Source of the DNA: Cytospora piceicola
Taxonomy: Eukaryota; Ascomycota; Sordariomycetes; Diaporthales; Cytosporaceae
Length of the DNA stretch: 64,000 nt
Assembly: GCA_023375675.1 (NCBI GenBank)
Contig: JALQBC010000031.1
Location: 452,114 to 516,113 of the forward strand
Direction: 5' to 3'
Both the position numbers and the translations under genes were made by a program. Shown one piece after another: positions 1 through 62,855 of this stretch; position 1 is the stretch's first letter; each line of letters begins with the position of its first letter. A model generated the notes under the pieces. It ran no database searches, was not told the DNA's origin, and saw only the letters and a list, made by a program, of their open reading frames with translations.

Positions 1-1053
1 ATCGTGCTCGTTGTGGCTATTCCTGCTGTCTCCTTCTGGCCACACCGGAGCCAAATCGTGCGTATGGTCATCCTTATGGTCATGGTTATGCCCGCCTTGA
101 ATCTGAATTTCGCCGTCGACCATGGGGAATGAGAGACCTAAGGAACATCATACCAGTCAGCAACCATTCAAATGAGCAGGTAAAAGCACAGTCATTATGC
201 GGCTTACCGAGTTGCGGATGCACCAGTGTCTTTTGGTCAAATATGGAGAACGACCGCTTCGATGCCCATTCGTCAAGTGCATCCCAGTTCACGCACGTCT
301 GGTCAGTATGGAAATTTGGCATTGGTGCGCGCATTTCCGGATGCCAATAGAACGTCACAACCGACAGGTCTGCGTGGCACATGAGAGATTCTCGGATATC
401 GTTTATGCAGTGGTCTGCGTGGCCGCGAAGGTCGGGGATGCTGACATTGTACTTGTCATGCCACAGGACCTGTCTCAGCATACTTAGGCAATGAAGATGG
501 TGGTATGCGCTGATCTGGCCGAAAAACCCGCCCCCGTTTCTCAGCTCGATGGGTTCGGGATCTTGAGTTCGGTTTAACTTCCGCAACTCCTCTGCGGTGA
601 AGCGAAGGTTGTAGTGTTTGAAGAGATGGGTCCATGCCTCTTCTACCTCGGGGCGCGGCTCGCCAGTATATTTGGTGCTCAGGCCGAGACTCCCATCGAA
701 CGAGTGTCTGTGGTACTCTTTGATGGCTTCCTTTGCCGGTGCTGTGATAGACAGGCATTAGTTACACGGCCAATGGATCACATGTGTCTGAGACATTGCA
801 ACATACTGTACGTGAGAAATGGATCGAGACTCGAAGAGCTCCAGGAGCGAGGCACCGTGAGTAGAACCAGGCTGTAGACGACGAGGAGGAAGACAGAGAA
901 ACCCCGGTGCTGCCACCACCGATAACGCTGCTTCTTGCCGTATGAGGGCGTATGAAACATTGTTGGCAATCCGTCCATCGAGTCTTTCTCACACTCATCA
1001 AGGAGCGGTGCCGCAGAGGTGCTGGACCTATCTGGCGACTCCATAATGAACAA
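1..1053 (-). CDS. UstYa-family (DUF3328) oxidase, 3' end cut by window edge
   Basis: Proposed exons on the minus strand are 1053-807, 741-208 and 137 to beyond position 1, with introns of 65 nt (GTATGT...CTAATG...CACAG) and 70 nt (GTAAGC...TTAG). The start is the ATG at 1053 or the one at 1044. The N-terminus carries one membrane helix (about residues 50-66, GFSVFLLVVYSLVLLTV), as in type II membrane UstYa proteins. The lumenal part has the two family-defining HxxHC motifs, YHHLHC near residue 162 and HADHC near residue 190, which bind metal. Family members carry out oxidative cyclisation, dehydrogenation or hydroxylation of fungal RiPP peptides and some other metabolites. The reading after intron 2 (GLSFPMVDGEIQ) fits the usual C-terminal end of the domain. 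It then continues into an unusual His/Asp-rich tail with no stop before the edge. It is divergent from the repeat precursor at 2190, its likely substrate. The family call is firm; the substrate is inferred. Confidence 0.88.
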
Positions 1054-2189: not shown

Positions 2190-2613
2190 ATGAAGCTCAC
2201 CCCCCTTATCATTGCTCTTTTGCCGTTCCTGGCTGCGGCGATCGCGGCGCCCACAGGCGGTAAGTCTGATCTACTCGCCACCGCTACCAATCCATCAAGG
2301 TTACTAATAACTGCCTACAGCCAGAGAGGGTGCTACTCAGCTCTACGACAAGCGTGCCGACTCTGAGGATGCTGTCCAGAAGGGCTACAAGCGTGCCGAC
2401 TCTGAGGATGCTGTCCAGAAGGGCTACAAGCGTTTCGACTCTGAGGATGCTGTCCAGAAGGGCTACAAGCGTTCCGACTCTGAGGATGCTGTCCAGAAGG
2501 GCTACAAGCGTTCCGACTCTGAGGATGCTGTCCAGAAGGGCTACAAGCGTTCCGACTCTGAGGATGCTGTCCAGAAGGGCTACAAGCGTGCCGACTCTGA
2601 GGATGCTACTTAG
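2190..2613 (+). CDS. Repeat-containing RiPP precursor (dikaritin/UstA type)
   Basis: Exons 2190-2259 and 2321-2613 are joined across a 61-nt intron (GTAAGT, branch TACTAAT, CTACAG) and encode 120 residues. Residues 1-20 are a signal peptide (MKLTPLIIALLPFLAAAIAA). After a short spacer ending in KR come six tandem 13-residue units of the form X-DSEDAVQKGY-KR (residues 36-113), with X = A, A, F, S, S, S. A partial seventh unit (ADSEDAT) precedes a TAG stop. Each Lys-Arg is a Kex2-type processing site, so the secretory route would release several copies of an 11-residue peptide with a C-terminal Tyr. Known UstA, PhomA, AprA and VicA precursors share this plan: signal peptide, KR-bounded repeats and a UstYa gene next door. 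The core here is different. The spacer GATQLYDKR looks like a degenerate repeat. An alpha-pheromone precursor was considered, but the repeats lack the Trp/Cys/Gly-Gln pattern of fungal alpha-pheromones. No product is known. Confidence 0.88.
2356..2589 (+). repeat. Six tandem 39-bp units encoding the RiPP core
   Basis: Six consecutive 39-bp units differ only in their first codon (GCC, GCC, TTC, TCC, TCC, TCC). Every other base, including silent positions, is the same in all six. That homogeneity suggests recent unequal crossing-over or gene conversion together with selection on the encoded peptide. A truncated seventh unit follows at 2590-2610. Confidence 0.97.
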
Positions 2614-2673
2614 AACTACAAGAGTCACAACTCTGAGGATTTGAGTCAGGACTACAGTCAGAAATACGACTAA
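2614..2673 (+). other. Untranslated degenerate repeat remnant after precursor stop
   Basis: The precursor frame continues past the TAG at 2611 for 19 sense codons to a TAA at 2671. The stretch is repeat-like: it keeps a Ser-Glu-Asp triplet and Tyr-Lys and Gln-Lys-Tyr steps, but has no Lys-Arg site. The TAG sits where full units carry the CAG codon for Gln, so it could be a C-to-T nonsense change that removed a decayed end of the array. The six functional-looking units upstream are unaffected. Confidence 0.55.
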
Positions 2674-3120
2674 GTGTCAAGCGTGGGGTCTGTTTCAGGG
2701 GGAGCTGTGGTGTTGGACTGTGGTGTGGGAACTATGTTCAGCACGAGCAAAGACGGACTGTAGACAGTGGGCAGTGAGCAGTTGGCAGGTCATCAAATAG
2801 ACATAATTCAGAGGGTTCTGGGCTTTGTCTCTCAGTTGAATACTCTTTTGTTGGTTTCCTGGACGTAGTGTTTCCCTGCGAAAAGCACACAAATAACGTC
2901 CCTCAAGCAGTCAACCCTCAAGCAGTCAACTCTCAAGCTGACAGCCCGAGGTGTAATCTGGTAGCCCCTCAAGGATGACTGTTCAAGTGGTAATAGTAGA
3001 TTCAAAATTAGATTGCCCATACGAGCGCCGGATCAACTGCTGCAACCACTCTTCGAAGTGGAGGACGTTTTGGGTAGTGGGACTCGGTAACCAACAAAAC
3101 TGATTGGAACATGCCGTCGT

Positions 3121-3774: not shown

Positions 3775-5292
3775 ATGTCGACTGCGAGACACGAAGAGAG
3801 GCCTCTGCTGGGCCCCAAGGGCGATAGCCATGAGCAGAAGCTCCGCCGGCGTGTTGTTGTTGTGAGCTTCACCCTGGTCCTGCTCAACGACTTCGCTGGA
3901 TTCTTTTTGGACGCTCCCCAGACGAGCATCCTTGAAGGAAACATTTGCAGCCGTTATTACCAATCCACGCCCAGCCCGGCCGGCAGAGACTGTACAGCTG
4001 GCCCAGTCCAGGCTGAGCTTGCGATCGTCAACCAGATGCTCAACACTTTCAACCGTCTGCCAGGCCTCTTCGCAGCCATACCCTTCGGCATCATAGCCGA
4101 CCGCTACGGCCGTCGCCCCGTGTTCGTCTTGACTATCCTCGGTGCACTCCTGCAGGATGTCATTTCCAAGATCATTCTCTGGCGACCTGACGTCTTCGCA
4201 CCGCGTCTTATCTGGTTATCGTCTCTTGCCACCTTTGTGGGCGGCGGGGATGCCGTCGCCACTTCCATGGTCTTCCTGGTCGTCGCTGACGTCGCCCAGC
4301 CACACCAGCGAGCAGAGCTGTTCTTCCTCCTGACCGCCTGCGAACGCGTCGGTGAGATCGTGGGTACACCATTGAGTGCCCTGCTTATGTCTATCTGGAA
4401 CCCCTGGATACCGTACCTCATGTACAGCATTTTGACCCTGCTCGCTGGTATGGTCCCGGTGCTCTTTCTGCCAGAGACTTTGCGGAGGTCCAGACCGCCG
4501 CCTGATACGGGAATAGAACCAGACACCCCTTTGTGCGAGTCCAACTCAAGGGCTGACGAAGGGTTGCCAGCCTCAGCGAACGGGACGCCGTCCACACCTA
4601 CACACTCCACCATCATATCAAAGTTCCGACCTCTTATCAAGCACAACGTTGTTGCTGTTCTGTTGGCCTTTTTCGTCTCAGCATTGGGTCGTCAGTCAAC
4701 GGGTTTTCTGTTACAGTACACCCGACAACGATTCAATTGGACTTACGAAAAGGTACTTACTGACATTGGCCATCCTTACCCGCTGAACACGGGCCAGATT
4801 TACTAACCACCGCGTCGACTCCAGGCTAGTGTGTTACTCACAATTCGGGCTGCTGTAGACCTTGTTCTGCTACTGGTTGTGCTCCCAGCCCTGCACAAAG
4901 TTCTCGTCAAACGCGATTCAGGTTCCCAGGGCAAGGATCTCCTGATCAGTCGTCTTTCTGTCGCATTATTCGGCATTGGCTCACTAGTTATCTCGTTGGC
5001 TCCGGTTGTGCCTGTACTCGCTCTAGGCATCGTCGTCTTCGCATTTGGCTCTGGCTTTTCGCCTGCCGCCCGCAGTCTGGCGACCACCTTCGTCCACCAA
5101 GATGAAGCAGGGCTGCTCTATACTGCCCTTTCCATAACGCAAACGGTTGGGGGGCTCATAGCAGGCCCTTTGCTAGCTTTGTCCTTCCGTTGGGGACTCA
5201 GCCTTGGGCCTCAGTGGACTGGCATTCCATTCACTCTGGTGGCTGGCTTGTTTGCCTGTGGATTCATTGCAATCTGTTGTATACGGCTGTAG
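3775..5292 (+). CDS. MFS transporter, probable cluster exporter
   Basis: Exons 3775-4752 and 4825-5292 flank a 72-nt intron (donor GTACTT after codons YEK, branch TACTAAC, acceptor CTCCAG) and give about 481 residues. The start MSTARHEERPLLG is preferred over an upstream in-frame ATG at 3538 because homologues begin with this short polar segment. The protein shows the MFS motif A (GIIADRYGRRPV) between helices 2 and 3, a long hydrophilic central loop (about residues 243-285) and helices on both sides. Its N-terminal extracellular loop (EGNICSRYY, then a Cys-Thr-Ala-Gly-Pro-Val-Gln-Ala-Glu-Leu run) is typical of the fungal SLC46-like MFS group. Ustiloxin and phomopsin clusters also contain an MFS gene (UstT, PhomT), so export of the cyclised peptide is a reasonable guess. 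It could instead be an unrelated drug or solute transporter. Confidence 0.88.
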
Positions 5293-5722
5293 TGTATAGA
5301 AGTGTTTGATAAAGCAAAGGTGCTTGGAGTTGTTTGCGAGTAAAGTGTATTAGAAAAAGAGGTGACTATACAACATAACCAGGTAGTTTTGGTGTTTAAG
5401 GTGGAGACGGGGCTTAAGTGGTTGTAAACAATCGAAACATCAGTTGTCGGTATTAATGACCGACTGTCCCATGAAATATTTTTCTTTAACCCATGTTGTT
5501 CCATTCTTACTACCGTTGACACGTCTAAGTATGTAGAGAAGTTAAGACATGCTACTCTCCTCCGTCACAGGCCAACCACGAAATTACTGAACAACTACCA
5601 GAACGAGAATCAACGTCATTTCAATGCTAGAGTCAATTAATCACTCTTCATTGTGCAACCGATTAACTACATATATATATACCTTCTCATGATCTGTGTT
5701 ATATTCCACCACCAAGCATCAT
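5293..5722. other. Intergenic region between convergent genes
   Basis: This is the 3' region shared by the MFS gene (plus) and the carboxylesterase (minus). It holds only a short TATA-rich run near 5670-5681. No gene is seen. Confidence 0.6.
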
Positions 5723-7789
5723 TCATGCCGGAATGTAGGCTCCCAACTCAGCCCAGAGATCACACCTCGCCCCCCTACCTCCCTCCCAGAGCATCCCATC
5801 CGCAACCCTGAAGCTGGCCGCATTAGCTGCAGTCACATTCAGGTCCAGCAACGCATACTTCCCATCGCCCGCGCCGTCAACGGGCCCGGTACCCTGGCCC
5901 CAAGGCTGCCAGTACTCGCTCTGCGCAGCCGTGATATTGTCCGCGGTAATATACGAGACCTTGACCTTGTCCAGATACCCCGAGGCGAGCGTGGGGTCGC
6001 CCCTGACGATCATGGACCCCCATATCCCCTGGAACGCCGCCCGGAAGGCGGCGTCCTCGCTCGAGCCCACCACGTACACCGGCGGCTTCTGCAGGGGCCC
6101 GAGGTCCACCGCGTGGAACGCGTTGGGCGGGGAGAACTGGTACCGCCAGGCCTTCTTGCCCTCTGCGTTGGGGTTGATGGCGGGCGAGTAGGCCGCGGCG
6201 AGCCAGTACGCTGGGCAGACCATGGTGACTTCCGCGTAGAGGTTGTCGGTTGCTTGTTGCCAGCCGCCGGCGGCCTTGCTCATATTCGTTGCGTATGGCG
6301 GGCTTAGGCCGTTGCTGTCGAACATGCCCGAAAATGGTCCAGATAGCCCCAGTGGGTATGTGACTGACCAGTTGGAGTCGAGACTATAGACATCCATGAT
6401 TGCTGCCAAGTTTGATTCCGAAAGTAGAGGATAATTGTAGCTGAGGTAGTTGGTGAGGTTCGCCTTACTAGAGATGTTCTGGTGAACGAACTCGTAGCCT
6501 TCATTCGCGTTTTGCCCAATGACTAAAGACTGTCCGTTTACTTTCCCGCTCAGCAGCTGGACAGTCGGACGCTCCTGGACGAAGGTGCCGTCGGTGACGG
6601 GGACGAATGCCCATTGTCCAAATAACGCCCGCGCGCTGACCTGGGCACTTGCATTCTGTAGTGTGTCTGAGTCCACGGTCGAGAGACATTGGAAGGTTTC
6701 TTCAGAGCTTGAGACGTCTTCACCATCGGCGCAGCCTGCAAAGTCCGCAAGCAAGTTGTAATACTTTGTTGGCCATGCACCGTCATAGTCCCTAGCCAGG
6801 GGGTAGTGTTAGTGATCTAATTGTCCATAAGTGCACATAATCCAGTCCGACTCACCATTGTTGCGGGATATAAGGACTACTGACAACACCATTCTGCCAT
6901 AGTCTTGTCCCGTCGGTGCCACCGTAGGCCATAGCTTGCAGTGCTACCGAGCCGCCTCCTGCTGACTCCCCAGCAATTGTTACATTGTTAGGGTCGCCAC
7001 CAAAGGACGAGATGTATTTCTGGACCCATTCCAAGGCATGATACTGGTCATATAATCCAGCGTTCGCGATGCCATGTTGCGATATAGATGTCGAAGAGGC
7101 GAATCCAAAGGCGCCTAGGCGATACTGAAGAACCACGAACATGAATCCATCGTCCATGAGCTCTGACATGAATGTGAAGTCGTAGGAAGAAGCTGAGCCT
7201 GTCCCGTAGCCGCCACCATCTAGAGTGCTCCAGTTAGTGATTGTCCCCCTTGAGCAAGGCCGAATAACCTACGGATGTAAAACATGACAGGTAGCAAGTC
7301 ATCGGCGCTGGACGGGGTGTATATGTTGAGAAAAAGGCAGTCTTCGTCCCCTGAATATCGAGCGCTGGTGATCGTCGGGACACTGATCCCATGTAAGTGC
7401 CATGTTTAGAATAACGTACAAGGCTTCTTCAAGCATACTAAGGGCCAATAGACAGCATAGATTGTGGACACTGGGGAGGGTCCGTGGTAGCTGTGAAGAT
7501 GTCCGTGGAATTACCAGAGGGCCACTTTGGAGCTTGCCATCTCGTCGGAGGGGCGGCGTAGCGAACGCTGGAAATTTGATTAGTTATCTACAGTATTGTG
7601 TTTTATAGAACGAGAAGCCCCTCGTTCAATAGTAGGAAGATTGACCGACCTCTTCCAGACATTGAATCCAGATGTATTGTTCGTATAGCCTACATAAGTA
7701 CCGTAGTCAAGTGTGACTTTGAGATTGTTTCCTAGACAGGCAGCCCCTGAGGCGGATAAGAGTAGACTCCAGAGAAATTTTGGTGACAT
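5723..7789 (-). CDS. Secreted type-B carboxylesterase/lipase
   Basis: Five exons are proposed on the minus strand: 7789-7650, 7567-7439, 7382-7273, 7219-6856 and 6791-5723. The introns are 53-82 nt with GT-AG ends, and frame is maintained throughout, giving about 603 residues. The N-terminus is a signal peptide (MSPKFLWSLLLSASGAACLG). Family landmarks appear in order: RYAAPP near the N-terminus, CLFLNIY, the oxyanion-hole motif HGGGYG (formed across the third splice), the nucleophile elbow GESAGG, the acidic-residue segment NEGYEF and the His segment FHAVDLG. The catalytic triad is therefore complete, and many N-glycosylation sequons suggest an extracellular or vacuolar enzyme that hydrolyses carboxylic esters. 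The first donor (GTCGGT) is weak, so the exon 1/2 boundary is least certain. A role in the adjacent RiPP locus is possible but not shown. Confidence 0.9.
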
Positions 7790-9730
7790 TGTCGATCATG
7801 AACAGTCCAAAGAGATGTGAATATCAGCGACAATTTAGTAAGATACCATCGCTTCTTCGCCAGCTTTAGGACGGCTTATATATAAGCATATACATGTTGA
7901 TGCTGAAGCTTGTGTCGGCGGCGATGTCAGGTAACGTGCCCGGCAAGAAATAAAAAACAAAGACCGACAAGCATCACGATCTTGGGTCCGTATTGCCCAC
8001 TTGATTTTCCATGTTACGGTGAGAGTCACGAATCGGAAAGCATCGCCGCTGAAAGAAGCTGTGACCATGAGCACGACATGCATATAGTCCATACCATTAG
8101 GGCCGCTCCAGTTACCCTCACGGCGGGTATAGCCTCCCGAGTCTGCTTCAGGGTGTGTAAGCCCTAGGCGCTTCTACCGATACAGAGACTGAGTTTGTAC
8201 GACTGTCGGTGAAATAATGTCTTTCCTTCCGCCGGAACGGCCTGTCACTTCCCTGATGACCACCTAATTTGCAGCAGGACTCTGATATACAGTCTTCGAA
8301 ATTTGTCAATATCATAGAGGGGGTTGTCCTATAAGAACGTGCCAAGCAAATACTACATGTGCGGTTTCAGGACGCACATCTAGAGGCTCTGAGGCTAAGA
8401 TAAACGGGCCGTCCGTCACCCTGCGGCCTGAGTATGTCAGCCTTCGACCACGTCATTTTTTACTCAGAATATCTCTTGAGTATGATGTCATTCAAACAAA
8501 TAGGCACACGTCTATGTGCCTGCTTGACGGTCGTCGTCTGGGAGATGATGGTGATAGAGAGGGGGCAACTAGGGGGGATAAGGGGTTCCCGCCGGAGTCT
8601 CACCACCCAACCATATTTGGAGCTTAATGCCTCCCGAAAAGACACCCTCCGTACTTAATCCACGAAGAGACAAAGAGATATTGGTAAAGATTGCGCCGGT
8701 GCGGGTAGCGGCATCAAGTCGCTGATGCAAGGGGAAGCCTCGGCTGCAACGACGGACGTGTCGTTCTTGTCGGAGCACACAATAATGCCGCGGAGCCGCC
8801 AGAGATTCGAGGCAGCCCGGCCGAGAGCCTCCTGACCACTGACAGCTCTGTAGGTCGGAGGTTATGCGTCGTTTTCGCCGACTTGGGAGGTTAGACGTGA
8901 AGATAAGGTTGTATCACGGCATCTGTGGCGTCGCTTGATGGCTTAATATTGGACTTTGACGTTGCCCTTATGCGGGTCGCTAACTCTGCATGGCATAATA
9001 TTTGGAAATCTCTTCGAACTGACTGTCAAGTGCTATATCGGAGTGACTGGCAAGGATTTAGTAGGACCCGTTGACACGTCCCGTGCATACATACCACCTT
9101 CCGTTTAGAGGTGGACGCGAATATCACTGCTTTTTAAGCACTTCCCACATCATGCATGGCACCATGTGTATATGAATATGGAATTGTCTAGATCTTCAAT
9201 CATTTGGGCCAAGTCCGCCATATCTTTATAACGTGGCAGTGCTAAGGCCATGGGTCCAGGAACTCGGCACCTCGGTTGGTAGTCCTGTCCTCAGTTATAG
9301 ACACATGACGATGGTATCAGCGGGATGAAAGTGATGCGATTTTGCACAAGGGATAAATGTGATTGGTAATTGTTCAGTTACGAGGTCTTTTTCCCATGAC
9401 TTGGCTCAACTTCGCTGTGCAATCGACCCCCTCCCTGGGGTCTACCTTACCCAGGTAAGCCCCGTTTCGGCTGCAAGTAGGGTCTCCCCGACGCTGCGGA
9501 ATGGTTTCCCTTTGTGAACCACGCTACAACGTTCCCACATGGACTTCTGCGAGATAACAATGCGCGTGATAATGATCCAGATCTTATATTTGAAGTGAAA
9601 TCATCCGAGGACCCAGAGGGAGTGCGTCAAGCTGCTCACTGGCCGTTTAACCTATGCCGAGGTTACCAGCAGGTAAGTAATTGAGTACTGAAGTTGGTTC
9701 TCCCGGATTCCAGTGTAATTATTCAACTTG

Positions 9731-17918: not shown

Positions 17919-18923
17919 CCCTAATTCTGATTTACACAACTGGCAAATGGTATGAAGACAGCGCTTTCTTCTCCTTTCTTTTTTTCTACTTTCTTTTCTG
18001 CTACCTAGAATTTTAGGGAAGTCTATTAAACCCTATTCTCCACGCTCGGTACATTTCCCTCCCGAGTTCGTGCCTTTGAGCAGGCTCTATGCTAGCAAAG
18101 GTGGTGCGGAGAGGGGTCAACAGCTTTCAGCATGCCGGATGGGCAACATTTTGGTCTAAGGTGGCAGAGATGGCTTAAAATACCTATTGAAATGCAGGAC
18201 GTACTGTACCAAGCCACAAAAACCTAGAATTACTGTCCAAGCCGGGCTTTACTCCCCCAGACACCCATTGACGTATGAAAGCTTTGTACAATGTACTAAG
18301 TGATTGTGCTCATTGCTACCTACTTAGGCAGTGCAGACCTTTCCAAATTATTTCTCCATGAATTCCTTATCCGCAACAATCTTACAGTGCTTTCCGACAC
18401 GATCCGAAGCCGTTGCAGTCAATGGAGACACTATCAGTTCCTTGCATATGTGGCGTCTAATAGATGCAATGACTAAAGATCTAGTAAGCACAAGCACACC
18501 CTCAGCAACGCATTAGGACTAGAACAATGATTATCATTCCATTTGGGTCAAGCCTCCTGCTGTGATACTCAATTCTCATGCACGTTGGGATGGATATGGT
18601 AGGTCAATAGCCCAGGGCCAGGTGGGAATGCAGCTGAGTTTCCCTCCTAGCAGATAATATCGATTCTGTAATTGGAAATGTGGAAATGAGGCGGGTGGGA
18701 CGGTGCACTGTGGTGTGCGCATTTCGCTAATTACTCTCCCAGCCTGATTTGAACCGAACGATATATATTACATGTATGACCAAAGCCGTGGTGTATTGAG
18801 GCCTGGCCTCACTTACCTGTCGAACATTAGCTTCGATTCACCCTGCTCAATGCATGTATCTGCTTGCGGAATCTTCTTCGTCTATAACCAACACGAGTCC
18901 TCCGTGACAACTTCACCGAAGAC
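17919..18923. other. Intergenic region upstream of HET gene
   Basis: About 1 kb separates the kinase stop from the HET-domain start. A short open frame at 18331-18516 has no signature. No gene is supported. Confidence 0.5.
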
Positions 18924-21900
18924 ATGGCCCACGCGCGGAGAATCCTGAAGTTGGAAGACAACGATTATGAACTCGTACCGGTCCAGTACAAACAGACTAA
19001 GACTTCGGAACTCCGGAAATTCGATGACCCGCAATTGAAGGACATTGAAGAATATCGCTATAGGCCACTGAGCGGTGCAAAGAAGAAGATTCGGCTTCTG
19101 CAGCTTAAAAGTGGAGCAATTGACGGTCCCGATATATATTGTGAGCTGGTTGAAGCTGATTATGACAATATTTTCCACATTCCAACGGTGCCTGAGACAC
19201 CAGAGAATCCCACCGAATCGTCTGATGGCGTAGACAAGTCACTTGAAATCACGACCGATGACAAGGAATTGAAGAACAAATTGGATGAATACAAGAGGTT
19301 GAGCAAAAGGGAGATCAAGTACGAAGCACTATCCTGGTGCTGGGGCACAGATGAACCAGAATACGTTGTGATGATTACCGAGAAGATCGGCTGGAGAGAG
19401 AAGACCTATAAGAAGAACGTGAGGAAGCAACTTGCGCTGGCACTGAAATATTTGCGTCATCCTGATAAGGGGAGGACTCTCTGGATAGATGCTATCTGTA
19501 TAGACCAGGACGATCCTAGCGAGCGGAACCACCAGGTGCAGATGATGTCAAGGATATATACCCGGGCGAAGGAAGTCTGCATTTGGCTAGGCGACGGTGA
19601 CCTCTCCAGCAAACGAGCAATCGACTTCATACGGGACGAAATCATGGAGTTGCGGAATTTCGATGCACTGTGCAACGACAGGAAATACACCGACCAATGG
19701 AAAGCATTAATGATGCTCATGCAACGAGACTGGTTCTCTCGTCGCTGGGTTGTCCAGGAAATTGCTCTCGCCAGCAAAGCGACAATTCACTGTGGGCCGG
19801 ATTCGATTTCATGGAAAGAATTCGCAGTGGCAGTGGAACTTTTCGTGGAGGTTGAAACAGCCACCCATCGTCTCTCGGAGATCATGCAGAAGGACGAAAA
19901 GTTCCGGCACGTACCAGGTTGGTTCGAGTACGTCTCGGAACTCGGCGCCAGTCTTCTAGTTCAAGCAACCGGCAAAGTTTTCCGTGCGCAAAGATCACCA
20001 CTGGAGGACAATGGGACCCCCACAGAGTCGAAGAAGACTGAGGAAGGGTCGAAGAAGAATGAGGAAGAGTCGAAAAAGACTGAGGAAGAATCAAAAAAGA
20101 TCGAAGAAGATAATGTCAGGAACAGATTGAGCAGGTACCAGACCATCGACCCATTGGACAGAAGAAGCCTCCTCAGCCTGGAATATCTAGTGTCGACTAT
20201 GTTCATCTTCAAAGCATCAGAGCCTCGGGACACCATCTACGCTATGCTTGCCATCTCAAGAGACGCCGCCCCTTTCGCAAGCTCCGGTGAAACTATCAGA
20301 GACCACCACGATGATGACACTCGTCTTATAATGACGGCTTGTGAGTCTTTTCTTGAGGAAAAACCGTTCACCGTGGACTACAGCCGGCCATATGCAGATG
20401 TCTGCAAGGACTTCGTACAATTTGCCATTCAGCGCAAAGCCAAGTTGGATCCGGCACAAGCGCTAGACATCTTGTGCCGTCCATGGGCCCTGGGTTTCAA
20501 ACCAGGCAAGTCGATACGGGAGACAGACGCTTCACAGAAGAAGCGAAAGTTAGAAGAAAAGCATCCTGGACCCGAATCCGAGGATCCATTGCAGAACCCC
20601 AAAGAAAGGAAACGGCGCAAACGAGATCCAGACAGCCATGTTGACAACAAAGACGACCCAGAGAGCTTTCAAAGATACCTCAAAGACAGCGAGGGTGGAG
20701 ATGTTTGGTATCCGGAGCCGGATTCACGGTCAACTGAAGATTATTGGGAAAACGTTGAAGAAAATGAAAAGGGGGGTTCTGAGAGGTGGAAACGTATGAA
20801 ATACCGCTATTTCCCCAGTCGCCATGGCCAAAGAGGAGGCGGGAACACCACCAACAATTCCGCGGCAGACAACAGGACTGTGAAGAATGACAAGGAGTAT
20901 ACAAAGCTTGAACGGAGGAATGAGCAGGAACTTCCTCTTCCGTCTTGGATTGCACGCGTATCTCAAGCACCAATAAGTCTTGATTATAGTCCCGGCATCG
21001 ACATTCAAAAAACCGGTCGAGCAAATGCAGATCCTTTGGTTGGACACCCTCTGGATGGCCACCGGAACTACAGCGCTGCGCAAACACAGAGGGTAAGACC
21101 TTTCCAATTCAAAAGGAGACCTCAAATGGGACACTATAGTCTGTATGTGAAAGGTTTCATTCTGGATGAGGTAGACGAAGTGATGGACGCCTCACAGGGG
21201 GGAAACATTCCTAAGTCTTGGCTCAACATGGCAGGCTGGACAAATTATAATCAAGATCCACCGGGCGAGTTTTGGAGGACTTTGGTGGCAGATAGAGGTC
21301 GGGACAACCGAAACCCTCCGTACTATTACGCCAGGGCCTGCAGGGAGTCGGTCAACAAAGGTGGCATTGCAAGCGGCAGAGTCGACACAGCGGCGCTTAT
21401 CAACAACGAACGGAACTCCATCGTCGCCGAGTTCTGCAGACGAGTCCATGCAGTCATTTGGAACCGCCGTCTCTTCAAAACGAAGGGCGGCAGGCTGGGT
21501 CTCGCAAGCAATGTCGACAGGGGTGATAAGGTTTGCATCCTCTATGGGTGTACGGTGCCTGTTATTTTACAACAGCAACCTGACAAGCTTGATCATATCT
21601 GCGCGTTAGAAATAGAAGAAGACCAAGTCGAGGCATTGAAACGATTGATTCGGGAATGCGAGAGGATTCGCGAGCGTAAGGAAAGGTATATGGAGAGGTT
21701 GGATAGGAAAGACAGCAAAAGGTGGACGGATGCTGATATTGAGGAAATGAAGGTAGCGAGGCAAAAAGTCAATGAAATGCTAAAGGCTGAATCCAAGTCG
21801 AACCAGGACGAAAATGTGGCACGTGTTGACAGGGAGTCAGAGGGGGACGGGGACACAGGAGATAGGACATCAAAAGGCTCAACTCCACCTGGACTTTCCC

Positions 21901-22073
21901 TCAAAAGACAAAAGACACTGGGCAAGAAGAACGAAGAAGAGGCTAAGGAGAATGACCCAAAACTCTGGTATGATTTCAGGGGAGATTGCTACATCCACGG
22001 TATGATGGATGGAGAGGCGATACGAGAGCGGCTGTACAAGGAGGTTGCGGATCGAACATTCGAGTTAAGGTAA
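18924..22073 (+). CDS. HET-domain protein (heterokaryon incompatibility type)
   Basis: A single uninterrupted frame of 1049 codons starts at MAHARRILKLEDND. The HET domain (PF06985 family) occupies roughly residues 130-290. Its motifs appear in order: YEALSWCWG, the LWIDAICIDQ block near residue 185, RIYTRAKEVCIWLGDGD, and WFSRRWVVQEIALA near residue 270. HET-domain proteins trigger cell death when incompatible hyphae fuse and act as fungal NLR-like or allorecognition effectors. A charged four-fold repeat (variants of EESKKTEE) spans about residues 367-396. A basic stretch (PKERKRRKRDP) near residue 560 could be a nuclear signal. The C-terminal region from about residue 900 is rich in Arg/Glu and likely forms a coiled coil. 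No NACHT, WD or ankyrin part is seen, so this is a stand-alone HET architecture of unusual length. Confidence 0.92.
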   Translation: MAHARRILKLEDNDYELVPVQYKQTKTSELRKFDDPQLKDIEEYRYRPLSGAKKKIRLLQLKSGAIDGPDIYCELVEADYDNIFHIPTVPETPENPTESSDGVDKSLEITTDDKELKNKLDEYKRLSKREIKYEALSWCWGTDEPEYVVMITEKIGWREKTYKKNVRKQLALALKYLRHPDKGRTLWIDAICIDQDDPSERNHQVQMMSRIYTRAKEVCIWLGDGDLSSKRAIDFIRDEIMELRNFDALCNDRKYTDQWKALMMLMQRDWFSRRWVVQEIALASKATIHCGPDSISWKEFAVAVELFVEVETATHRLSEIMQKDEKFRHVPGWFEYVSELGASLLVQATGKVFRAQRSPLEDNGTPTESKKTEEGSKKNEEESKKTEEESKKIEEDNVRNRLSRYQTIDPLDRRSLLSLEYLVSTMFIFKASEPRDTIYAMLAISRDAAPFASSGETIRDHHDDDTRLIMTACESFLEEKPFTVDYSRPYADVCKDFVQFAIQRKAKLDPAQALDILCRPWALGFKPGKSIRETDASQKKRKLEEKHPGPESEDPLQNPKERKRRKRDPDSHVDNKDDPESFQRYLKDSEGGDVWYPEPDSRSTEDYWENVEENEKGGSERWKRMKYRYFPSRHGQRGGGNTTNNSAADNRTVKNDKEYTKLERRNEQELPLPSWIARVSQAPISLDYSPGIDIQKTGRANADPLVGHPLDGHRNYSAAQTQRVRPFQFKRRPQMGHYSLYVKGFILDEVDEVMDASQGGNIPKSWLNMAGWTNYNQDPPGEFWRTLVADRGRDNRNPPYYYARACRESVNKGGIASGRVDTAALINNERNSIVAEFCRRVHAVIWNRRLFKTKGGRLGLASNVDRGDKVCILYGCTVPVILQQQPDKLDHICALEIEEDQVEALKRLIRECERIRERKERYMERLDRKDSKRWTDADIEEMKVARQKVNEMLKAESKSNQDENVARVDRESEGDGDTGDRTSKGSTPPGLSLKRQKTLGKKNEEEAKENDPKLWYDFRGDCYIHGMMDGEAIRERLYKEVADRTFELR
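20024..20110 (+). repeat. In-frame Lys/Glu repeat inside HET gene
   Basis: Four imperfect tandem units of about 21-24 bp encode variants of the E-[ES]-S-K-K-x-E-E pattern. It is a low-complexity charged linker between the HET domain and the central region and probably varies in length between strains. Confidence 0.8.
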
Positions 22074-29640: not shown

Positions 29641-32600
29641 GTTATAAGCCTGGCTTTTTAAACCTTTTTAGTAAAAATCTATTAAACACTCTTCTCTTAT
29701 CGTTTAAACGCTTTTTTCTTATAAAATAATTACTTTAATTATATCTTTTAACAGCTTAGAATCTATTTTTACAGGTTCGATACTCTTATATAATCGTAAA
29801 AGCTACTTAACCTAATTTCTTTAACTTAAATTCTATTATATACTTTATAATATCTAAAAGTAAATCGATTCTAAAAAGCTTAATTAGCTAAACTCTTTAA
29901 CTAATATCTTTATATAACCTATATTTAAAAACGTACTTAATTTTAAAAAAGCAGCTACTTAAATAAACTATATTAAACAGCTTAAGAACTAAAACTAAAG
30001 CGATTAAGCTATTCGCGGTATAGTTTTAGTTAAGCCGGAAGAACTTAATTACGATAAAGCCGTTTTAAAGCTTAATTAGCTTTAAAAGTAGTAGAATATA
30101 AGTAATATAATTACTTCGATTGTTTCGAACTACTACCTTACGGTTTAAAACTAAGTAAACCGTATAGTAAACGTTAATTTACTCGTTTTTACTTAAGTTA
30201 AAATCGTTATATAAAGTATTATTACGTTTTAAAAAGTTATCCGAATATTAAAAGATTATTTAGCCCTTTTTCCTTCGAATATAAGAATAACCGCCGTAGA
30301 AAAATACCGGGCGACGTTTAAAATAACGAAAGTAAAAAGGAAAAACCTTTTTAAATAATACGTTTAGTAATACCGAGTATTTCTTTATATTTAAGTATAC
30401 GATTTAACAGATATAAATAATATACTTATTATTAAAGATTTTATTAACGTAATTAGTAAACGTATAACTTTAAATTAAGCTAGTTGTATTATATAAAACT
30501 TCGTTAAAAATAATAAGCTAAATAGCCTTATACTTACTTTAAAGTAGCTCGGTATATAGTTTATTACTTTTAGCTACGAAAAAGCTAACCGCTTTTTTAA
30601 AAAACCTGCTATATTTATTACGTTTTTAAATTAAATATTTTAAAAAGGATTTTATAACGATAAGCCGAAAGTTTTTTGTTTATATAGTTAGATATATTTA
30701 TAATAACCTAAAAATTACGTTAAGCTCGAAATAGTAATAAAAGGCTTTTTAAAGCTTATTTAAAGGCTCGGAAAAAGCTTACTTACGCTTTTATAAATAA
30801 GCGAGATACGTAAACGCCTTAAAAAAGTAAGCTAGTCTACTCTTAAAAAATAGCTTTCTAATAAAGGGTAGATTAAAAGTAAAAGTAAAACTAAGTAAAA
30901 TTAGTTTATATATCCCGAGGAAATTAATACCTTTTTCCGAGAATACTCCGCTTTTATTAAGTAAGGTATTTATTTAACTATTTATACTTTTTTTTACTAG
31001 CTTTTATATAATACTTTAATCGATAACTATAAAGCTTTTTACTTAGTTAATACTATAAATCTACTTACTTCCGACTCGGTTTAAAAAGCTAAGCCTAAGG
31101 ATATAGTAAAGGCTAATACTATAGCCTTTCCGATTACTATTAAAAAAACTTAAGTAATTAAAAATATCTTTAATAAAGCTCGAAAACTTAATATAGAAAA
31201 CCTAGTCTTTAAAAACGTTATATATATAAAAGGCTTTTATATTAATATTATTTCGGAAGCTTATTTAAAACAGGCTAATATATAGTATATAAAACTAAAC
31301 TATATCCTTCGGTATAAAGTACTCGATAAAAACGTAGTAGTTAAACAGTTAATACGTTATTATAATTTAGTTTTCTTTAAATATAAACCTCTTTCTACCT
31401 ATATAAATAACTAAATAGTAATTCCGATAAGCGACGTTAATATCGTTATATATATAATACTTATAGTAATTTAAAAAAAAAATATAGCCTTTACTAACTA
31501 AAGAAGATTTAAAGTATCTTTAATACTTATAATTAAAGTATTTAAGGCTAAAAGTTTTAAAGGTAATAGTTTAAGCTATATAAAGAATAAAGATTAATAG
31601 TATATAACGTATAAAGTATAAGTATTACGTAATAACGTATACTTTATATATAATATTAAAATAAGTTTTTAAAAACCGCTTATTACGTCTATTTTAACGT
31701 ATTAATTAAAATCTGTTTAATTTCTTATATAAGTTAAACGGCTTATTTTAGTTATTAGTAATTAAAAACGAGTTTTCGAAGGTATTTTATATAAAAACAT
31801 TTTTATTAAAAAGTAAAAGAGATATATTTCTTATATTTAAAGAGTTTTAAAATATAGTAAAAACTAAATATAAGCTTACGGTTTATAAAGTTTATTAAAA
31901 TAACGAAAAAGTAGTAATCTTAAAATATAGTAGTACTAACTATATAAAGTAGTATATATATAAAAGAATCGAACTCAAGCTTATATTAACTTATATTTAT
32001 AAGCTAAATAAAAGTAGTAAACGTATAGAAAAAAAGGTTATTACTAAATCGATTAAAATATATACTATAGCTAACTTACTTAAAAAGCTATAGCTATAAA
32101 TAAGTACGGTAGTTATATATCTTTATAACTAATCTTCGCGTTAAAGAAGAGTATAAGCGTCTTTAAACTAAATACTCGAAATATAGTTCGTTTAGTATTT
32201 CCGTTAATATACTTTCTACCGAGTTTATAAGCTTACGATAAACCTACGCTTTAATTAAAAGAATATATATATATATAAATACCGAATATATCTTTTAATT
32301 AAAAACCGAAAAGTAAAACGTAGTAAACGTTTATTTAAAGTACGACTAAAGGCGTATATCGGCTATTTAATAAGTTATAAAACGTTTAATATTTACTTAA
32401 TTTAAGTCTTTATAATCGACTAAGTAATTACTATACGTAACGTCGTTTTCGATAAAGAGCTCTTTTATAAACTAAAGAAAAAAGCTAATAGTCTAACTAT
32501 ACTTAAATATATAGATATACTATTTAAAATTACAGATAATAAGGTAATAAATATAACTCTAGTTATTAAAGCGCTTAAAATCCTTAACGGTTTTAAAGAA

Positions 32601-35600
32601 TAGGCCGTTATAATACGTTTACTAGAAACTAAGCTTTTAAATAAGCCGTTCGAAAGCTTAAAAGTAAAAAATAAGTAATTATTAATAAAACTACCGAGCT
32701 TTAAAAATATACTTAATCTACCGCTTAAAATAATAAAAGGTAGTAAACTACTTACTTTAAATAAAAAAGACTAGTAAAACCTAGCTTACGATAAATAAGG
32801 TATATAAAACCTTTAATACGAAAGTAACGAAATCTTAAACGTAAATATACAACTCTTTTTATTAGATAAAAGAATAACCGGTAATACTATCGTAATATAT
32901 ATTAATAATTTATTATAAATAGTATTTTTTCGGCTTAAGCGCTTTTAATAAATAAAGCGAAAACCGAGAATAAAAGTAAGCCGGCGCTAATAAAGGCTTC
33001 CGCTAAAAAATAGTAAAGCTTTTATAATAATACTTTTCGAAAATAAACTAATTAATATCCCGAAAAAACGTAAATAGTTAACCTTTTTTAATACCTTTAT
33101 ACTTAATTAGTAAAAAGCTTTAAATAAAAGTAACCGAGTATATAAAATGTTATATATAGTCTTATTTATAACGGTATAATAATACTTAGCTGTTTATAAA
33201 AGTATAAGACTTACTTATTCTCTTTTATACCGAAATAAGCTTATTAAATTACTACCAGATAATTAAAAAGAGCTTTAAAATTATCCGGTAGCCGAGTTTT
33301 TTATAAAAGTTATATACTTAAAACTTTAAACTTTAATTATAAAAAGAACGTAATAAAAGATAAATAGAAACGTAGTCGATAGCCGGCTACTTCTTTTTAA
33401 ATAGGTTTTTACGTATAAATAAAATAAAGACGGTTTTTTAAAGTATAAAAAAGTACAGATATATATATATAGCGATTTTTAGCCGGTTAATATACTTTAA
33501 AGTACTTATATAGCTATACTTATTATATAGTTGTTTCGAATCGTTATTACTATAGCTGTTTAGTTTAATTTTAAAATTAAGTAGTTTAATATAGTAAACG
33601 CTTTTTTAAACGTTTTACTCGAAAGCGAGCCGGTTTACTATAAGCTTCCGGATAGCTTTAAAAAGCTTAAAAAATACGTATAGTTATTAAACGTATTATA
33701 TAAACTATAGGACGTTTTATTACTATAGTATAAAGAATTTACGTCTATATTTAAAAAGCTTAGTTTAAAACCTAATAAAAAAGAATAGTATCTTTTCTAA
33801 AACGAGTATAAGACTATTATTATAGTATTTTATATAAATAATTACCTTATAATCTATTATAAATATAACTAATAAAAAGCTTATAAAGTAATCGATAAAC
33901 TTATATAAACGTATAAAGTAAAAGCTTAAAAAGTAACGGAATAATACCTCGGAGTTTATATTATTAAAAATAAAGTAGTAGAATATATCTACCTTACTTA
34001 TAATTCTTATATCGAGAAAATCGTTAAACGTTTTAGGTTAATAGAACGGAAATCCTTAAGTATTTTTTTATTATTTATACCGTTTAAGAAATATAAGAAA
34101 GTAACAATAAAGAAGTAGATTAAAATATATTAAAAATAAGTTAAATTACTTTTATACTTAGTAATAATAATCCGAGTAAACGTAACCTTCTTTTTTACTT
34201 AGCTTTTTTACTTTTTAATAAATCCCGGCTTAAAGTATTTAAATACTATTAAATAAAATATTTTATATTTCTATAGCTTATATATACTTTCGATTCGGTA
34301 TAAAAATAATTAAAAAAAAGTTTTTATTTTTATAGTAAATACTTCTTTTATAAATAATAAAGAATTTAAATAATCGTTTTATAAGTATATTATAATACTT
34401 TATAAAAAGCTTATTTATTAATAAGCTACCCGGTAAAATACTATAATTATATTAATTATTAAAATAAAGGTTTTAAGTATAGTATATATAGTAAAAAAGC
34501 TTATAGTAATTAAAAAGCTATTTTAAAATCTAATATTTAATATCGGAAGCTTATAGAACTTTTATAATAATAACTAATAAACTATTAAACTAATTATTAA
34601 AAATAATAAAAAAGTAATTATAAAGCTCTATTACGTTAATATTTATAATATATAGCTTAAATAAAAGTACGTTAAAGGCTTATTTTACGTATAATATATA
34701 CTTACCGAGTTTATACCGGTAAATAAGCTTATAAAAAACTTATTAAAAATATAATTTAAATACTTTAAAATACTATTAAATTTTTATAACGTTATATAGT
34801 TACTTAAAATAAGTATAGAAAAAAACTTTTAATTTTAAAGGGATTACCTTTTACTAATACTAAAAAGCTTAAAATATAAACTTTTATTTAAAAAAGCAGG
34901 TTAACTAAAGTATATAAGCCTTTCTTTACCTTACGCTTAAACGTAGTATACTTTTTATTTTTATTCTTATCTTACTTTTTTTCTTTATTTTCTTTCTCTT
35001 TTTACTTACTATAAATAAAAAAGCTACTTTTATCTTACTTATTCTCTTTATTTTCGACCTTACCGAACAGTACTTTTATATAAAGGTAAATAGTAAACAC
35101 GGCTTTAAAAATCGCGCCGTTCTTTTCGAAAAGCTCGATAAGCTTAGCGATAACGTAAGTAGTAAGCTCGGAAACCGGCTTATATTTATACTTTAAAATA
35201 TACCGAATATAATAAGTAAAATAACCGGGGTTAGCTTAATCGAAATAAGTACCGGTCGAGTAGCCGGTAAAGGTAAAGCGAAAATAGCTAACGTAAAAGA
35301 CATTTCGATAAACGCTAAAGCCGTTATCGTTATCGTCCGACTAAGTAATAAGCTACTTAAAGTAATTAACGAAAGATACTTAAAGACTTAAAATAAATAA
35401 TATATATATAAGTAGTTAGCTTACGTTAAGCTTACTATTTTTCCGGGAAACGCTTATAAAAGAGACTACCGAGGTAAGAAATCTTTTTAATAGGCTTATC
35501 TTACTTTTAAAGTTAGTTTTAAATTAGAAAAAAGTTCGGAAAAAGCCTACTTACCTTTCTCGTAGCTAACGTAAGTATTTTAATAAAAGCAGAAGGCGGT

Positions 35601-35608
35601 ATTTTATA

Positions 35609-35680
35609 TATATACGTATATATTTATATATATACGTATATATTTATATATATACGTATATATTTATATATATACGTATA

Positions 35681-35722
<42 letters not shown>
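35609..35722. repeat. TA-rich tandem repeat inside the retrotransposon
   Basis: Four roughly 20-bp units (TATATATATACGTATATATT) are followed by a pure TA run and then TACGCGTATG. It lies in the 3' untranslated part of the element, near its right LTR. Confidence 0.85.
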
Positions 35723-35723
<1 letters not shown>

Positions 35724-35977
35724 GCGTATGTATAGGTTTATTAGCTCGAAAAATATAGAAAAGCGTAGTATAGAAAGAAGGGGAGCTTTTATAAGTTTAA
35801 AAGAAACATTTAAAAAGTACGTAATAAGCGTTATTTTATTATATTATATCTATTTAAAAGCGCTATTATAGCTATTAAAGCCTTTTATAGCTATATTTCT
35901 TTTATTATTATTTAAAATATTATAATAGTAAGCTTATAATATATATAACAGACGATTCGAGTATCGTCTAAAGGGTA

Positions 35978-36127
35978 TATTACGTATCTAAGCATATCTA
36001 GGCCTACTCTATTATAAAGCTCGCTACTAATATAGTCTATATAAGGGAGCTTCTTACGCCTATTGTAAATAGTATATAATAGCAGTCAAGTTGCTCTATT
36101 CGATGTACCCTGCTCTAGATCGTCTTA
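35978..36127 (+). repeat. Right LTR (150 bp)
   Basis: This is the same length as the left LTR. Most differing sites keep the unmutated C or G here, while the first few bases are the more mutated copy, so both LTRs were hit independently. Confidence 0.92.
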
Positions 36128-47340: not shown

Positions 47341-50300
47341 GTGTAAAGGGTGTGAGAACCGGGGGCCGAGGGCCGAGCGTAGCGCTACCTAATTTAGCGT
47401 GTGATAGCGTTCGATTAGCGGGGCGTCGGCTCGTTTACGGCCTTCGAGGCTAAGACACCCCCCTTTTTAGCGGCGTTACTAGGGTCGTAATATCGCGAGA
47501 GGAATATAAATAGTCGCGTTAATCTGTGTTACTATAGGTCGCGTTATTTTTAACGCGATAAGCTTACTTTATTACTATAGATATATAAGCGGCCGAGCAG
47601 GCGTAGTTACTAGCGACCTACTTATTATTATTGCTTTACCGTTTAATTATTACGATTATAACTTATAGTGTTTTATTTATTTGTTAGTATAGCTATTTAA
47701 TATACGGAGCTGTATTTTACTTAATTTAGCTAGTATTTACTTTATAACGCCGACGCCGTACTTAAATAGCGATAATAGTACGCCGGCTTCGAGTTTAAAG
47801 ATAACGACGTCGTAAAGGTTATTTCGGCCGACTACTTATTTTTATAGGACTTTTTTATTAACGTTTAGTTAAAGAAAGGAGTTAGTAATACGTATAATAA
47901 ATCGCTTAAGGTTATTACCGCTAATAGCTTATTTATTATTAAATATTACTTTTATAAATATTATTAATAGTATATAAAATCGAGAGGTAAGGGTATTAAA
48001 TATAAGATAGGTAATAGCTATACTATATACCTTATGCGTATAGTAGTAATAAAAACGTTTAAAGTAGCCGGGTAAAAGTTAATAAACGACTTAAACTTTA
48101 TAAATAGGTGTAAACTGCTATAAAATAAAGAGTGCTAACCGGTAAAAAGGTTTTATTTAGGTATTACGGTTTTTATAATAATAACTACGACTTAACGTAC
48201 TGTAATAGCGTTTACTACTTTCGCGGCTTAGCTAACGTTATTAAAAGATATTTCGAATACAGCTACGGCTTCGAGAAAGGTTAAGTAAATAGTATATAGA
48301 AGAAGGACGTCGAGTTATAGCGTAAGGTAAAATTATATAAGGTTTACGACGCGTAGCTTATTAACTTAGCCGTTTTTTGTAACTAAGAGAAATCGATTCG
48401 AGTAAAGAGGGTAGTAAAAAAGGCGACGATTAGCGATAGCTTTATACGGTAGCGATAGGTAAAACGTTACATTAAGTAGTAGTATTAATAAGTTTCTTTT
48501 TTAGTAAGTTTAGAAGACTAAGACTTATTATAATTAAACGTAACGATATCTTTACGTAGTTATAAAACAAGAAACTACTTTATATAGCTATTAACTTATA
48601 TAATCGTACGGTAAGGGAGGAGAAAAAGGTATTTTACGGTCTAATATTTATACCGCTTAAGTTAAATGTTTTTATAGGCGGTACTTTTTAAAGCTACGGT
48701 TGTTTTATACTATTTAATAGCTTATATAAAACTAACTGTTTAAGCTAGTATCTTTTTACTATTTAGGTTCGTAATAACTACGGCTATTAAAGGTAAGGCG
48801 CTTTTTTTCTAACGTAAAGCTAGTACGTATAGGTAATCGAAGATTGTTTAGCTGTTATTAAGTAGCTAGTATTAAGCTAGGAGTTAGAATAGGTAATAAA
48901 CGACGATTTTAGTGTTAAATAGTAAGGCTTTTATAATTTTTTACGTTATAGTTAGGGTAGATAGGTTATTTTGTTGTTTTATTAAAAGTATTAGACGAAG
49001 GTAGTAGAAAAGCGTATACTTAAAAGGGCTTTTAACGTTGCCTGTAAATAGTATTAAAAAGTAGTGTATAATACGGTTAACGAGGAGGAATATAGGCTGT
49101 TTTATTAAAAGGCTGTTAACGTTATACTTAAAGCGTGTAAGGTATAGAAGGTATACTTTTAAAAAAAGCTGTTAAATAGTAAAAACTTTAAGTAGGTATC
49201 GTAGGCGAGATAAGTTTTGTTTTTAATATTTTACTTAGGCCTTTATTATATAACCTTTTTTACTAATATGTGAGTTTCGTGTTAGATTTTATATATCGAT
49301 TTTTTTTTAAGTATTTACGATATCGCTGTTAGAAGGCTTTTATAGCTATTTAAAAAGGGATAAGGTAAAGGGAGAGATAAATAAGTATACTCTGTTAAAA
49401 ACCGTTTAATATATATTTAACGTATATACGTAGTAGTATAAAAAAGCTTAGAGCGTAACAGCTAAGGAGTTTATTAAAAAGATATTAAACCTTACTGCCT
49501 ATTTTAGCTATTTTATTACTATCCTTATTACCTTATAATAGCGTTAAATAAAATAAATATAAAAGGTTAAAAGCGATAACGAAAATAACAATACTTTTTT
49601 TTATAAAGTTAACGTCTATAAGCTTAAATGCTTTTATCGATTTTAGCAGCGGTAGTAGCTATTTTATATTTATATATAGCGGAAGTATTTATATAAAGGT
49701 AAGAAGATTACCGAAGTATAGTTTAAGTAAGTTTATATACTTTTTATATAAAGCGGCTAGCTTATTTACTACTAGACTTTTAACGACTTTTTCGTCGATT
49801 ACGTTTAAGGTAAAATAGAGCTAATATATAAGGAACAGAAGTAAGTAATACTACGATTTCTATATTATTAAAGTAGCTATAGACTAACGATACTTTTAGA
49901 CGTTATTAAGCTTTCACGCGTAAGTTATAAACTAACTACGTTAAAGCGAAAGAGATCTAGTTTAAGTAGGTAGAATAGCTATAAGCTATATAGTATAGTT
50001 TAATAGAACTATTATAGGTTATTAGCGATTAAGGCAAGTTTTTACTATAAATTATAAGAAGTCTAGATAGCTGTTCTATATAGGAAGCTACGAATATATA
50101 AGGCTTTTTCTCGGTAGTAGTAACGATAGCGAGGTTTACGATAGTGTTTAAAGTAGTATAGTTAGGCGTGTTTATCGTGTTTACGTAGGTAAGTATAACT
50201 AGGTATAACTTTAAAGCTGTTTATATAGTATTTACTAATAAATATATTTAATAGGCGATAACTTCGTTTCCCTTTATAGGCCTTATACGATAACTTACGA

Positions 50301-54040: not shown

Positions 54041-54135
54041 AGGGGAAAATAACCGTTAGAGGGGGGTGTAACACCTTACTCAGAATTAACCGTTAATATA
54101 AAAGAATAATTAGCTAAGAGCATCTGTTGCCGCGA
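54041..54135 (+). repeat. Left terminal inverted repeat region
   Basis: It contains GGGGAAAATAACCGTTA, ACTCAGAATTAACCGTTA and GAGCATCTGTTGCC, in the same order as the reverse complement of the right end. Confidence 0.55.

Positions 54136-62775: not shown

Positions 62776-62855
<80 letters not shown>
62776..62855. repeat. TTAC tetranucleotide microsatellite
   Basis: About 20 nearly uninterrupted TTAC units occur within a wider field of TTAC/TAAC/TTAG variants that spans about 62690-63170. Confidence 0.95.

What the first reader, a model, noticed from the sequence alone, without database searches (positions are those of the whole stretch)
2190..2613. Apparently undescribed fungal RiPP precursor with an X-DSEDAVQKGY core
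The sequence shows a signal peptide followed by six 13-residue units separated by Lys-Arg sites and differing only at the residue right after each KR (A, A, F, S, S, S). Fungal dikaritins such as ustiloxin, phomopsin, asperipin-2a, epichloecyclins and victorin come from precursors built this way. The core here is acidic at the front (DSED) and ends in Gln-Lys-Gly-Tyr, which matches no core I know. I infer secretion, Kex2 cleavage, and oxidative crosslinking through the C-terminal Tyr by a UstYa enzyme.
Basis: partly seen in the sequence, partly recalled or inferred. Interest (0 to 1): 0.93.

Follow-up and report, generated by a model that had tools for sequence, protein, structure and literature searches.

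The report
Fungal repeat-peptide precursor beside UstYa oxidase
A fungus carries a small gene for a secreted protein made of six near-identical 11-residue peptides, next to the kind of enzyme that ring-closes such peptides into dikaritin natural products; the peptide sequence looks new, but the type of system is known.

Summary
Window 2190-2613 encodes, through one 61-nt intron, a 120-residue protein with a signal-like N-terminus and six KR-separated units XDSEDAVQKGY (X = A,A,F,S,S,S), identical in DNA outside the X codon. This resembles the asperipin-2a cluster. A second precursor/UstYa/MFS-like locus with a different core lies elsewhere in the genome. The pheromone rival is unlikely: a typical alpha-pheromone precursor lies on another contig. 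A methyltransferase-like gene beside the cluster is broken by a hAT-like insertion, and an open, repeat-like frame follows the precursor's stop, so the pathway may be simplified or decaying. Tyr crosslinking is inferred. The core was not in the open-access text searched, but no fungal protein search was possible and supplementary KEP tables could not be read. Verdict: a probable new member of a known kind.

The parts
2190..2259 (+). precursor (KEP) exon 1: signal-like N-terminus MKLTPLIIALLPFLAAAIAAPTG
   Evidence: most hydrophobic 15-mer LIIALLPFLAAAIAA, mean Kyte-Doolittle 2.71
2260..2320 (+). 61-nt intron, GTAAGT...TACAG
   Evidence: no RNA data
2321..2613 (+). precursor exon 2: AREGATQLYD-KR, six XDSEDAVQKGY-KR units, ADSEDAT, TAG
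   Evidence: 39-nt tandem array, score 492
2356..2589 (+). the six full 39-nt units (X = A,A,F,S,S,S)
2614..2673 (+). open frame behind the TAG, still repeat-like (NYKSHNSEDLSQDYSQKYD, then TAA); remnant or divergent edge units
   Evidence: TRF row 2576-2656
807..1044 (-). UstYa exon 1 (N-terminus and hydrophobic stretch)
   Evidence: spliced model of 319 aa, introns with GT..AG ends; splice sites chosen by eye
208..741 (-). UstYa exon 2, PF11807 domain with two HXXHC motifs
   Evidence: PF11807 E=1.5e-47 on the open frame 86-757; invariant H/H/C columns
1..137 (-). UstYa exon 3 (runs 51 bases beyond the window start); His-rich acidic tail
3775..5292 (+). MFS transporter, intron 4753-4824, 481 aa
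   Evidence: PF07690 E=8.6e-20 on the first exon, 17.7 bits (below the cut-off of 33.4) on the second; spliced model has one stop, at its end

Best explanation
The gene encodes a Kex2-processed repeat protein (KEP) that serves as the precursor of a dikaritin-type (UstYa-dependent) peptide in a small cluster: precursor, UstYa oxidase, MFS exporter. The protein enters the secretory pathway, the kexin-type protease cuts after each Lys-Arg, and a carboxypeptidase trims the Lys-Arg. That would release three versions of an acidic undecapeptide (A/F/S-DSEDAVQKGY; neutral monoisotopic masses 1181.52, 1257.55, 1197.51). The membrane-anchored UstYa then links the single Tyr oxidatively to a neighbouring residue (expected -2.016 Da per link), and the MFS protein exports the product. 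I would place the ring in the C-terminal QKGY part and read DSED as spacer or recognition segment. Shown: the coding structure, the repeats, the KR sites, an unbroken UstYa frame with its motifs, an unbroken MFS frame, the linkage, one kexin-type match in the genome. Inferred: expression, cleavage, cyclisation, which residues are linked, export, and activity.
For: Signal-like N-terminus, phase-correct intron and KR-separated array. UstYa is head-to-head with the precursor, ATG to ATG 1.15 kb; it is the best-scoring of 36 UstYa matches in the genome (35 over the cut-off; six-frame search, lower bound), and its spliced model has 319 aa, no inner stop, a hydrophobic stretch at residues 48-66 and both HXXHC motifs. 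MFS lies directly downstream. A second locus in the same genome (L049) has a 13-unit KEP beginning with a hydrophobic stretch, head-to-head with a UstYa (E=2.4e-43), with MFS-like exons beyond it. Umemura 2020 (PMC7329392, abstract and passages) reports that 22% of KEP genes have a DUF3328 gene within 15 genes, most often in the next position, that 65.6% of repeat sequences in such KEPs contain Tyr against 38.2% in the others, and that pheromone KEPs almost never have one. The asperipin-2a cluster has precursor, one UstYa homologue, transporter and reductase, with core FYYTGY (PMC6514808, passages). In Venturia inaequalis, dikaritin precursors were picked by a DUF3328 gene close to a gene for a signal peptide plus tandem repeats of at least 10 residues between kexin sites (PMC9632046, passages); this gene would pass. 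One P_proprotein match in the genome (the same family also rings in 1 of 14 control genomes, an archaeon).
Against: No transcript, peptide or product data. No tyrosinase match on the contig (5 PF00264 matches, all elsewhere), although none is listed for asperipin-2a either. The neighbouring methyltransferase-like gene is broken and the precursor ends in a cut-short unit, so the locus may be losing function. No fungal orthologue could be sought.
Confidence: 0.7

Rival explanations
1. Decaying cluster: a former dikaritin locus that no longer makes its finished product in this strain, the remaining frames being recent leftovers.
For: Methyltransferase-like pieces 1.0-2.9 kb upstream of the window are separated by a 776-bp element with 19-nt terminal inverted repeats and an exact 8-bp target duplication, and by my reading the frame also changes within a coding stretch. 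The precursor's stop is followed by an open repeat-like frame. The locus adjoins a block of at least about 17 kb at 22-30% G+C.
Against: UstYa, MFS and precursor frames are unbroken with plausible splice sites, and the six units are base-for-base identical outside the X codon. No methyltransferase is listed for asperipin-2a, so the loss need not end the pathway.
Confidence: 0.2
2. Unmodified KEP: the gene yields linear secreted peptides (signal or effector-like) and the UstYa acts on something else.
For: About 78% of KEPs in the Umemura survey have no DUF3328 gene within 15 genes, so linear KEP peptides are probably common (PMC7329392). Three KEPs annotated as pheromones do have one in that range, one of them at two genes' distance (same passages).
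Against: Adjacent divergent UstYa with the motif pair; Tyr in every unit; the same pairing repeated at a second locus.
Confidence: 0.12
3. Mating pheromone precursor.
For: Same general architecture: signal peptide and repeats between KR sites.
Against: The genome has a typical alpha-pheromone precursor on another contig with five WCLLKGQGCW copies and KR sites. Pheromone KEPs almost never have a DUF3328 neighbour (3 of 216 fungal pheromones, 0 of 227 yeast mating factors; PMC7329392). The core has no Trp or Cys.
Confidence: 0.02
4. Structural wall or adhesin repeat protein, repellent-like, cut by kexin.
For: Kexin-processed repeat proteins whose peptides regulate wall structure are known (abstract of PMC6339444).
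Against: Acidic, Tyr-ended 11-mers beside UstYa and a transporter; only 120 residues.
Confidence: 0.03

Closest known systems
asperipin-2a cluster (Aspergillus flavus aprA, aprY, aprT, aprR)
   Same: Precursor with KR repeats, a single UstYa homologue, one transporter, no tyrosinase listed; core ends in Gly-Tyr (FYYTGY, PMC6514808). Its 8-residue repeat (PMC7329392) would be this core plus KR, which I infer
   Different: 11-mer acidic core with one Tyr instead of a 6-mer with three; no reductase like aprR showed up among the ORFs I gave to Pfam, but that family was not searched for; a broken methyltransferase-like gene is present
ustiloxin B / phomopsin clusters
   Same: 13-residue repeat unit as in the ustiloxin precursor (PMC7329392), UstYa proteins, a methyltransferase gene in the ustiloxin cluster
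   Different: No YxI core, no tyrosinase match on this contig, one UstYa instead of two or five; here the methyltransferase-like gene is broken
epichloecyclins (Epichloe gigA)
   Same: Signal sequence, KR repeats, Tyr cyclisation and Lys methylation reported (PMC6514808); this core has one Lys and one Tyr
   Different: Core sequences could not be compared here; no unbroken methyltransferase seen at this locus
[quoted passage not shown]
   Same: Meets the definition: secreted, repeated motifs between kexin sites (PMC6339444, PMC7329392)
   Different: Core not found in the open full texts searched; the supplementary KEP tables could not be read

Membership tests
KEX2-processed repeat protein (KEP) | N-terminal signal peptide | tested here: met
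   Hydrophobic stretch LIIALLPFLAAAIAA (mean Kyte-Doolittle 2.71) then PTG; no trained signal-peptide predictor was available
KEX2-processed repeat protein (KEP) | three or more near-identical repeats separated by KR/RR | tested here: met
   Six units
KEX2-processed repeat protein (KEP) | cleavage by the kexin protease | not testable with these tools
   Sites present, and one P_proprotein match in the genome; cleavage itself not shown
dikaritin (UstYa-dependent RiPP) | DUF3328/UstYa gene close to the precursor | tested here: met
   PF11807 E=1.5e-47, adjacent and divergent
dikaritin (UstYa-dependent RiPP) | two HXXHC motifs in the UstYa protein | tested here: met
   H86xxH89C90 and H113xxH116C117, invariant in the 6 UstYa sequences of this genome that I aligned, of 36 matches
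dikaritin (UstYa-dependent RiPP) | oxidatively crosslinked (cyclic) product | not testable with these tools
   No mass data; each unit has one Tyr
ustiloxin/phomopsin subtype | tyrosinase gene in the cluster | tested here: not met
   5 PF00264 matches in the genome, none on contig C27
ustiloxin/phomopsin subtype | core YxI-type peptide | tested here: not met
   Core is XDSEDAVQKGY
ascomycete alpha-pheromone precursor | W-C-x3-G-Q-x-C type peptide (motif recalled) | tested here: not met
   Absent here; five such copies in one ORF at C79

The most novel reading that the evidence does not exclude
The locus makes a new UstYa product scaffold: an acidic undecapeptide family varying only at its first residue, ring-closed through a C-terminal Gln-Lys-Gly-Tyr segment by a single UstYa with no tyrosinase. 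A hAT-derived insertion has removed its methyltransferase in this strain, so it releases an unmethylated version. The first-residue variants would come out together as a small natural library.
Probability: 0.25. Interest if true: 0.5.

Novelty: new member of a known kind. Interest (0 to 1): 0.36.

Why it matters
UstYa enzymes form unusual side-chain links, and their selectivity is hard to predict (recalled). Two head-to-head precursor/UstYa pairs with different cores in one genome give matched substrate and enzyme sets for testing how a UstYa reads its substrate. If the product is real, it also shows a cluster caught after the loss of a tailoring enzyme to a transposon. If not, it is one more KEP among the thousands already catalogued (7878 in 1345 of 1461 strains, PMC7329392).

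Tried and rejected
Shared recognition motif: the window core, the flanking unit AREGATQLYD and the second KEP's units (EAAKQY...) can be lined up as E-x-A-x-Q, but shuffles give p = 0.24, 0.28, 0.11, 0.40 and 0.03 for five comparisons, and 0.29 for a DNA comparison of the flanking unit with the core unit. I do not claim homology or a shared motif.

Hypervariable X: only three codons (GCC, TTC, TCC), and no change elsewhere in the six units. All variation falls in one codon, but the array is homogenised, so this is weak evidence for diversifying selection.

KEPs at other UstYa loci: of 36 UstYa matches 30 were held with 1.5 kb flanks. Thirteen 10-kb stretches were also held, three of them upstream of this cluster and ten around other UstYa matches. 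The scan of the 49 sequences then held (50% unit identity) found only this gene, in the window and in two loci that overlap it. The scan of L049-L053 (40%) found one more, in L049, plus one out-of-frame by-product on its other strand. Most UstYa loci were not seen beyond 1.5 kb, so the number of pairs in the genome is unknown.

SNAP/SPO22/DEPDC5 domain matches of the second KEP and a weak Sigma70_r2 match of the first are treated as chance matches of repetitive sequence, although the SNAP match is above Pfam's cut-off. No solved structure matches the UstYa exon by sequence at E up to 1. Plasmid records hold nothing similar to the precursor. I did not determine the species.

Full report
What was claimed. 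A fungal RiPP precursor at 2190-2613 with six KR-separated 11-mers, inferred to be secreted, cut by Kex2 and crosslinked by a UstYa enzyme.

Splicing 2260-2320 (GTAAGT...TACAG) gives a 120-residue protein that begins with a hydrophobic signal-like sequence and carries six units XDSEDAVQKGY-KR. Without splicing the ATG frame leaves the repeat frame. TRF scores the 39-nt array at 492 with 98% matches. Outside the X codon all six units are identical in every base, so the array has been homogenised and its protein-level identity is not in itself evidence of selection. The seventh unit is cut short by TAG; behind it 19 codons stay open and still look like the repeat. The genome search found no second copy of the protein (2 of 2 matches are its own exons).

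The surroundings decide the reading. Directly upstream and divergent is a UstYa gene: exons 807-1044 and 208-741, and from 137 to 51 bases beyond the window start; 319 residues without an inner stop; a hydrophobic stretch at residues 48-66. PF11807 matches at E=1.5e-47, and it is the strongest of 36 UstYa matches, 35 of them over the cut-off, in this 43.6-Mb genome. Both HXXHC motifs are present, and their His and Cys are invariant across the six UstYa sequences of the genome that I aligned. Double HXXHC is the mark used for RiPP-type DUF3328 proteins (PMC12048977, passages). Downstream lies an MFS transporter, 481 residues in two exons. Beyond it come a carboxylesterase, an FAD-dependent oxidoreductase and, further on, HET and GLEYA proteins, which I do not count in the cluster. 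There is no tyrosinase match on the contig.

A second pair. At L049 (contig C1) a 292-residue KEP with 13 units such as DPEAAKQYFHVAGDVLD lies head-to-head with another UstYa (E=2.4e-43), followed by MFS-like exons. Those exons match MFS_1 only below Pfam's cut-off (23.5 and 18.7 bits against 33.4), but one shares 34% identity over 100 columns with the window's MFS. The two UstYa proteins share 27% identity over 176 columns. The arrangement is shared, the cores are not; an apparent common motif did not survive shuffling.

Signs of wear. Upstream of UstYa, in L031, lie pieces of a SAM-dependent methyltransferase-like gene. The N-terminal piece matches a solved SAM-dependent methyltransferase, 3bkx, at E=1.2e-7, while its Pfam and NCBIfam matches are all below the cut-offs. 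That the other pieces belong to the same gene is my reading of their order, strand and sequence; they have no convincing family match of their own. They are separated by a 776-bp insert, L031 7414-8189, with 19-nt terminal inverted repeats and an exact 8-bp target duplication, and by the same reading the frame also changes within one coding stretch. The ends of the insert recur elsewhere at 69-89% identity (7 further matches); at C2, C66 and C28 hAT dimerisation-domain matches overlap those end matches (3 of 10 PF05699 matches). So the insert is best read as an internally deleted hAT relative. The C-terminal piece has one match in the genome, itself. Beyond it lies sequence of 22-30% G+C.

Mechanism. 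The most likely course is secretion, kexin cleavage at KR, trimming, UstYa oxidation at the Tyr, and export. A ring within QKGY is my inference from the C-terminal Tyr and from asperipin-2a, whose FYYTGY core also ends in Gly-Tyr and whose cluster is precursor, one UstYa homologue, transporter and reductase (PMC6514808, passages). Epichloecyclins, reported with Tyr cyclisation and Lys methylation (same source), are a parallel for a Lys- and Tyr-containing core beside a methyltransferase gene.

Rivals. The pheromone reading is unlikely: a typical alpha-pheromone precursor with five WCLLKGQGCW copies is on contig C79 (motif recalled; the pattern's other 11 of 16 matches lie elsewhere, and its backward control gave 5), and in the Umemura survey pheromone KEPs almost never have a DUF3328 neighbour (PMC7329392, abstract and passages). 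A linear KEP and a decaying cluster remain open.

Novelty. The strings DSEDAVQKGY, SEDAVQKGY and DSEDAVQ occur in none of the 5.39 million open-access papers held. That search does not cover supplements or subscription papers, and the protein database was off. With 7878 KEPs already listed in one survey, this is most likely a new member of a known kind.

Papers: PMC7329392 (abstract, outline, passages), PMC6339444 (abstract, outline, part 1 of 2 of Results), PMC6514808, PMC12048977 and PMC9632046 (passages); all others only as search listings.

Noticed in passing
L049 (C1:228000-237999), 2229-3107 minus; UstYa 4313-5353 plus; MFS-like exons 6839-8317 minus: A second KEP of 292 residues with 13 units (DPEAAKQYFHVAGDVLD and variants) head-to-head with a UstYa gene, MFS-like exons beyond: another probable dikaritin-type cluster. 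Three strings of its core were not found in open-access full text.
   Followed up: partly
L031 7414-8189: 776-bp hAT-like insert with 19-nt inverted ends and an 8-bp target duplication inside a methyltransferase-like gene; it contains about two dozen tandem copies (counted by eye) of a decamer gctgttatat.
   Followed up: yes
L065 (C79:746100-747500), minus strand: Alpha-pheromone precursor with five WCLLKGQGCW copies; the string WCLLKGQGC was not found in open-access text.
   Followed up: partly
window 1-137 minus and L049 near 5353: Both UstYa proteins end in a His-rich tail (GGHNHDH... and HGGHAHDH...; 11 His in the last 50 residues of the window's), possibly metal-binding.
   Followed up: no
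window 18888-22073 plus: Long open frame of 1061 residues with a HET (heterokaryon incompatibility) domain (PF06985, E=1.1e-30).
   Followed up: no
window about 30000-36000, 48000-50000 and 54000-64000: AT-rich blocks (22-32% G+C) between gene blocks of 42-53% G+C; the window end is the contig end.
   Followed up: no
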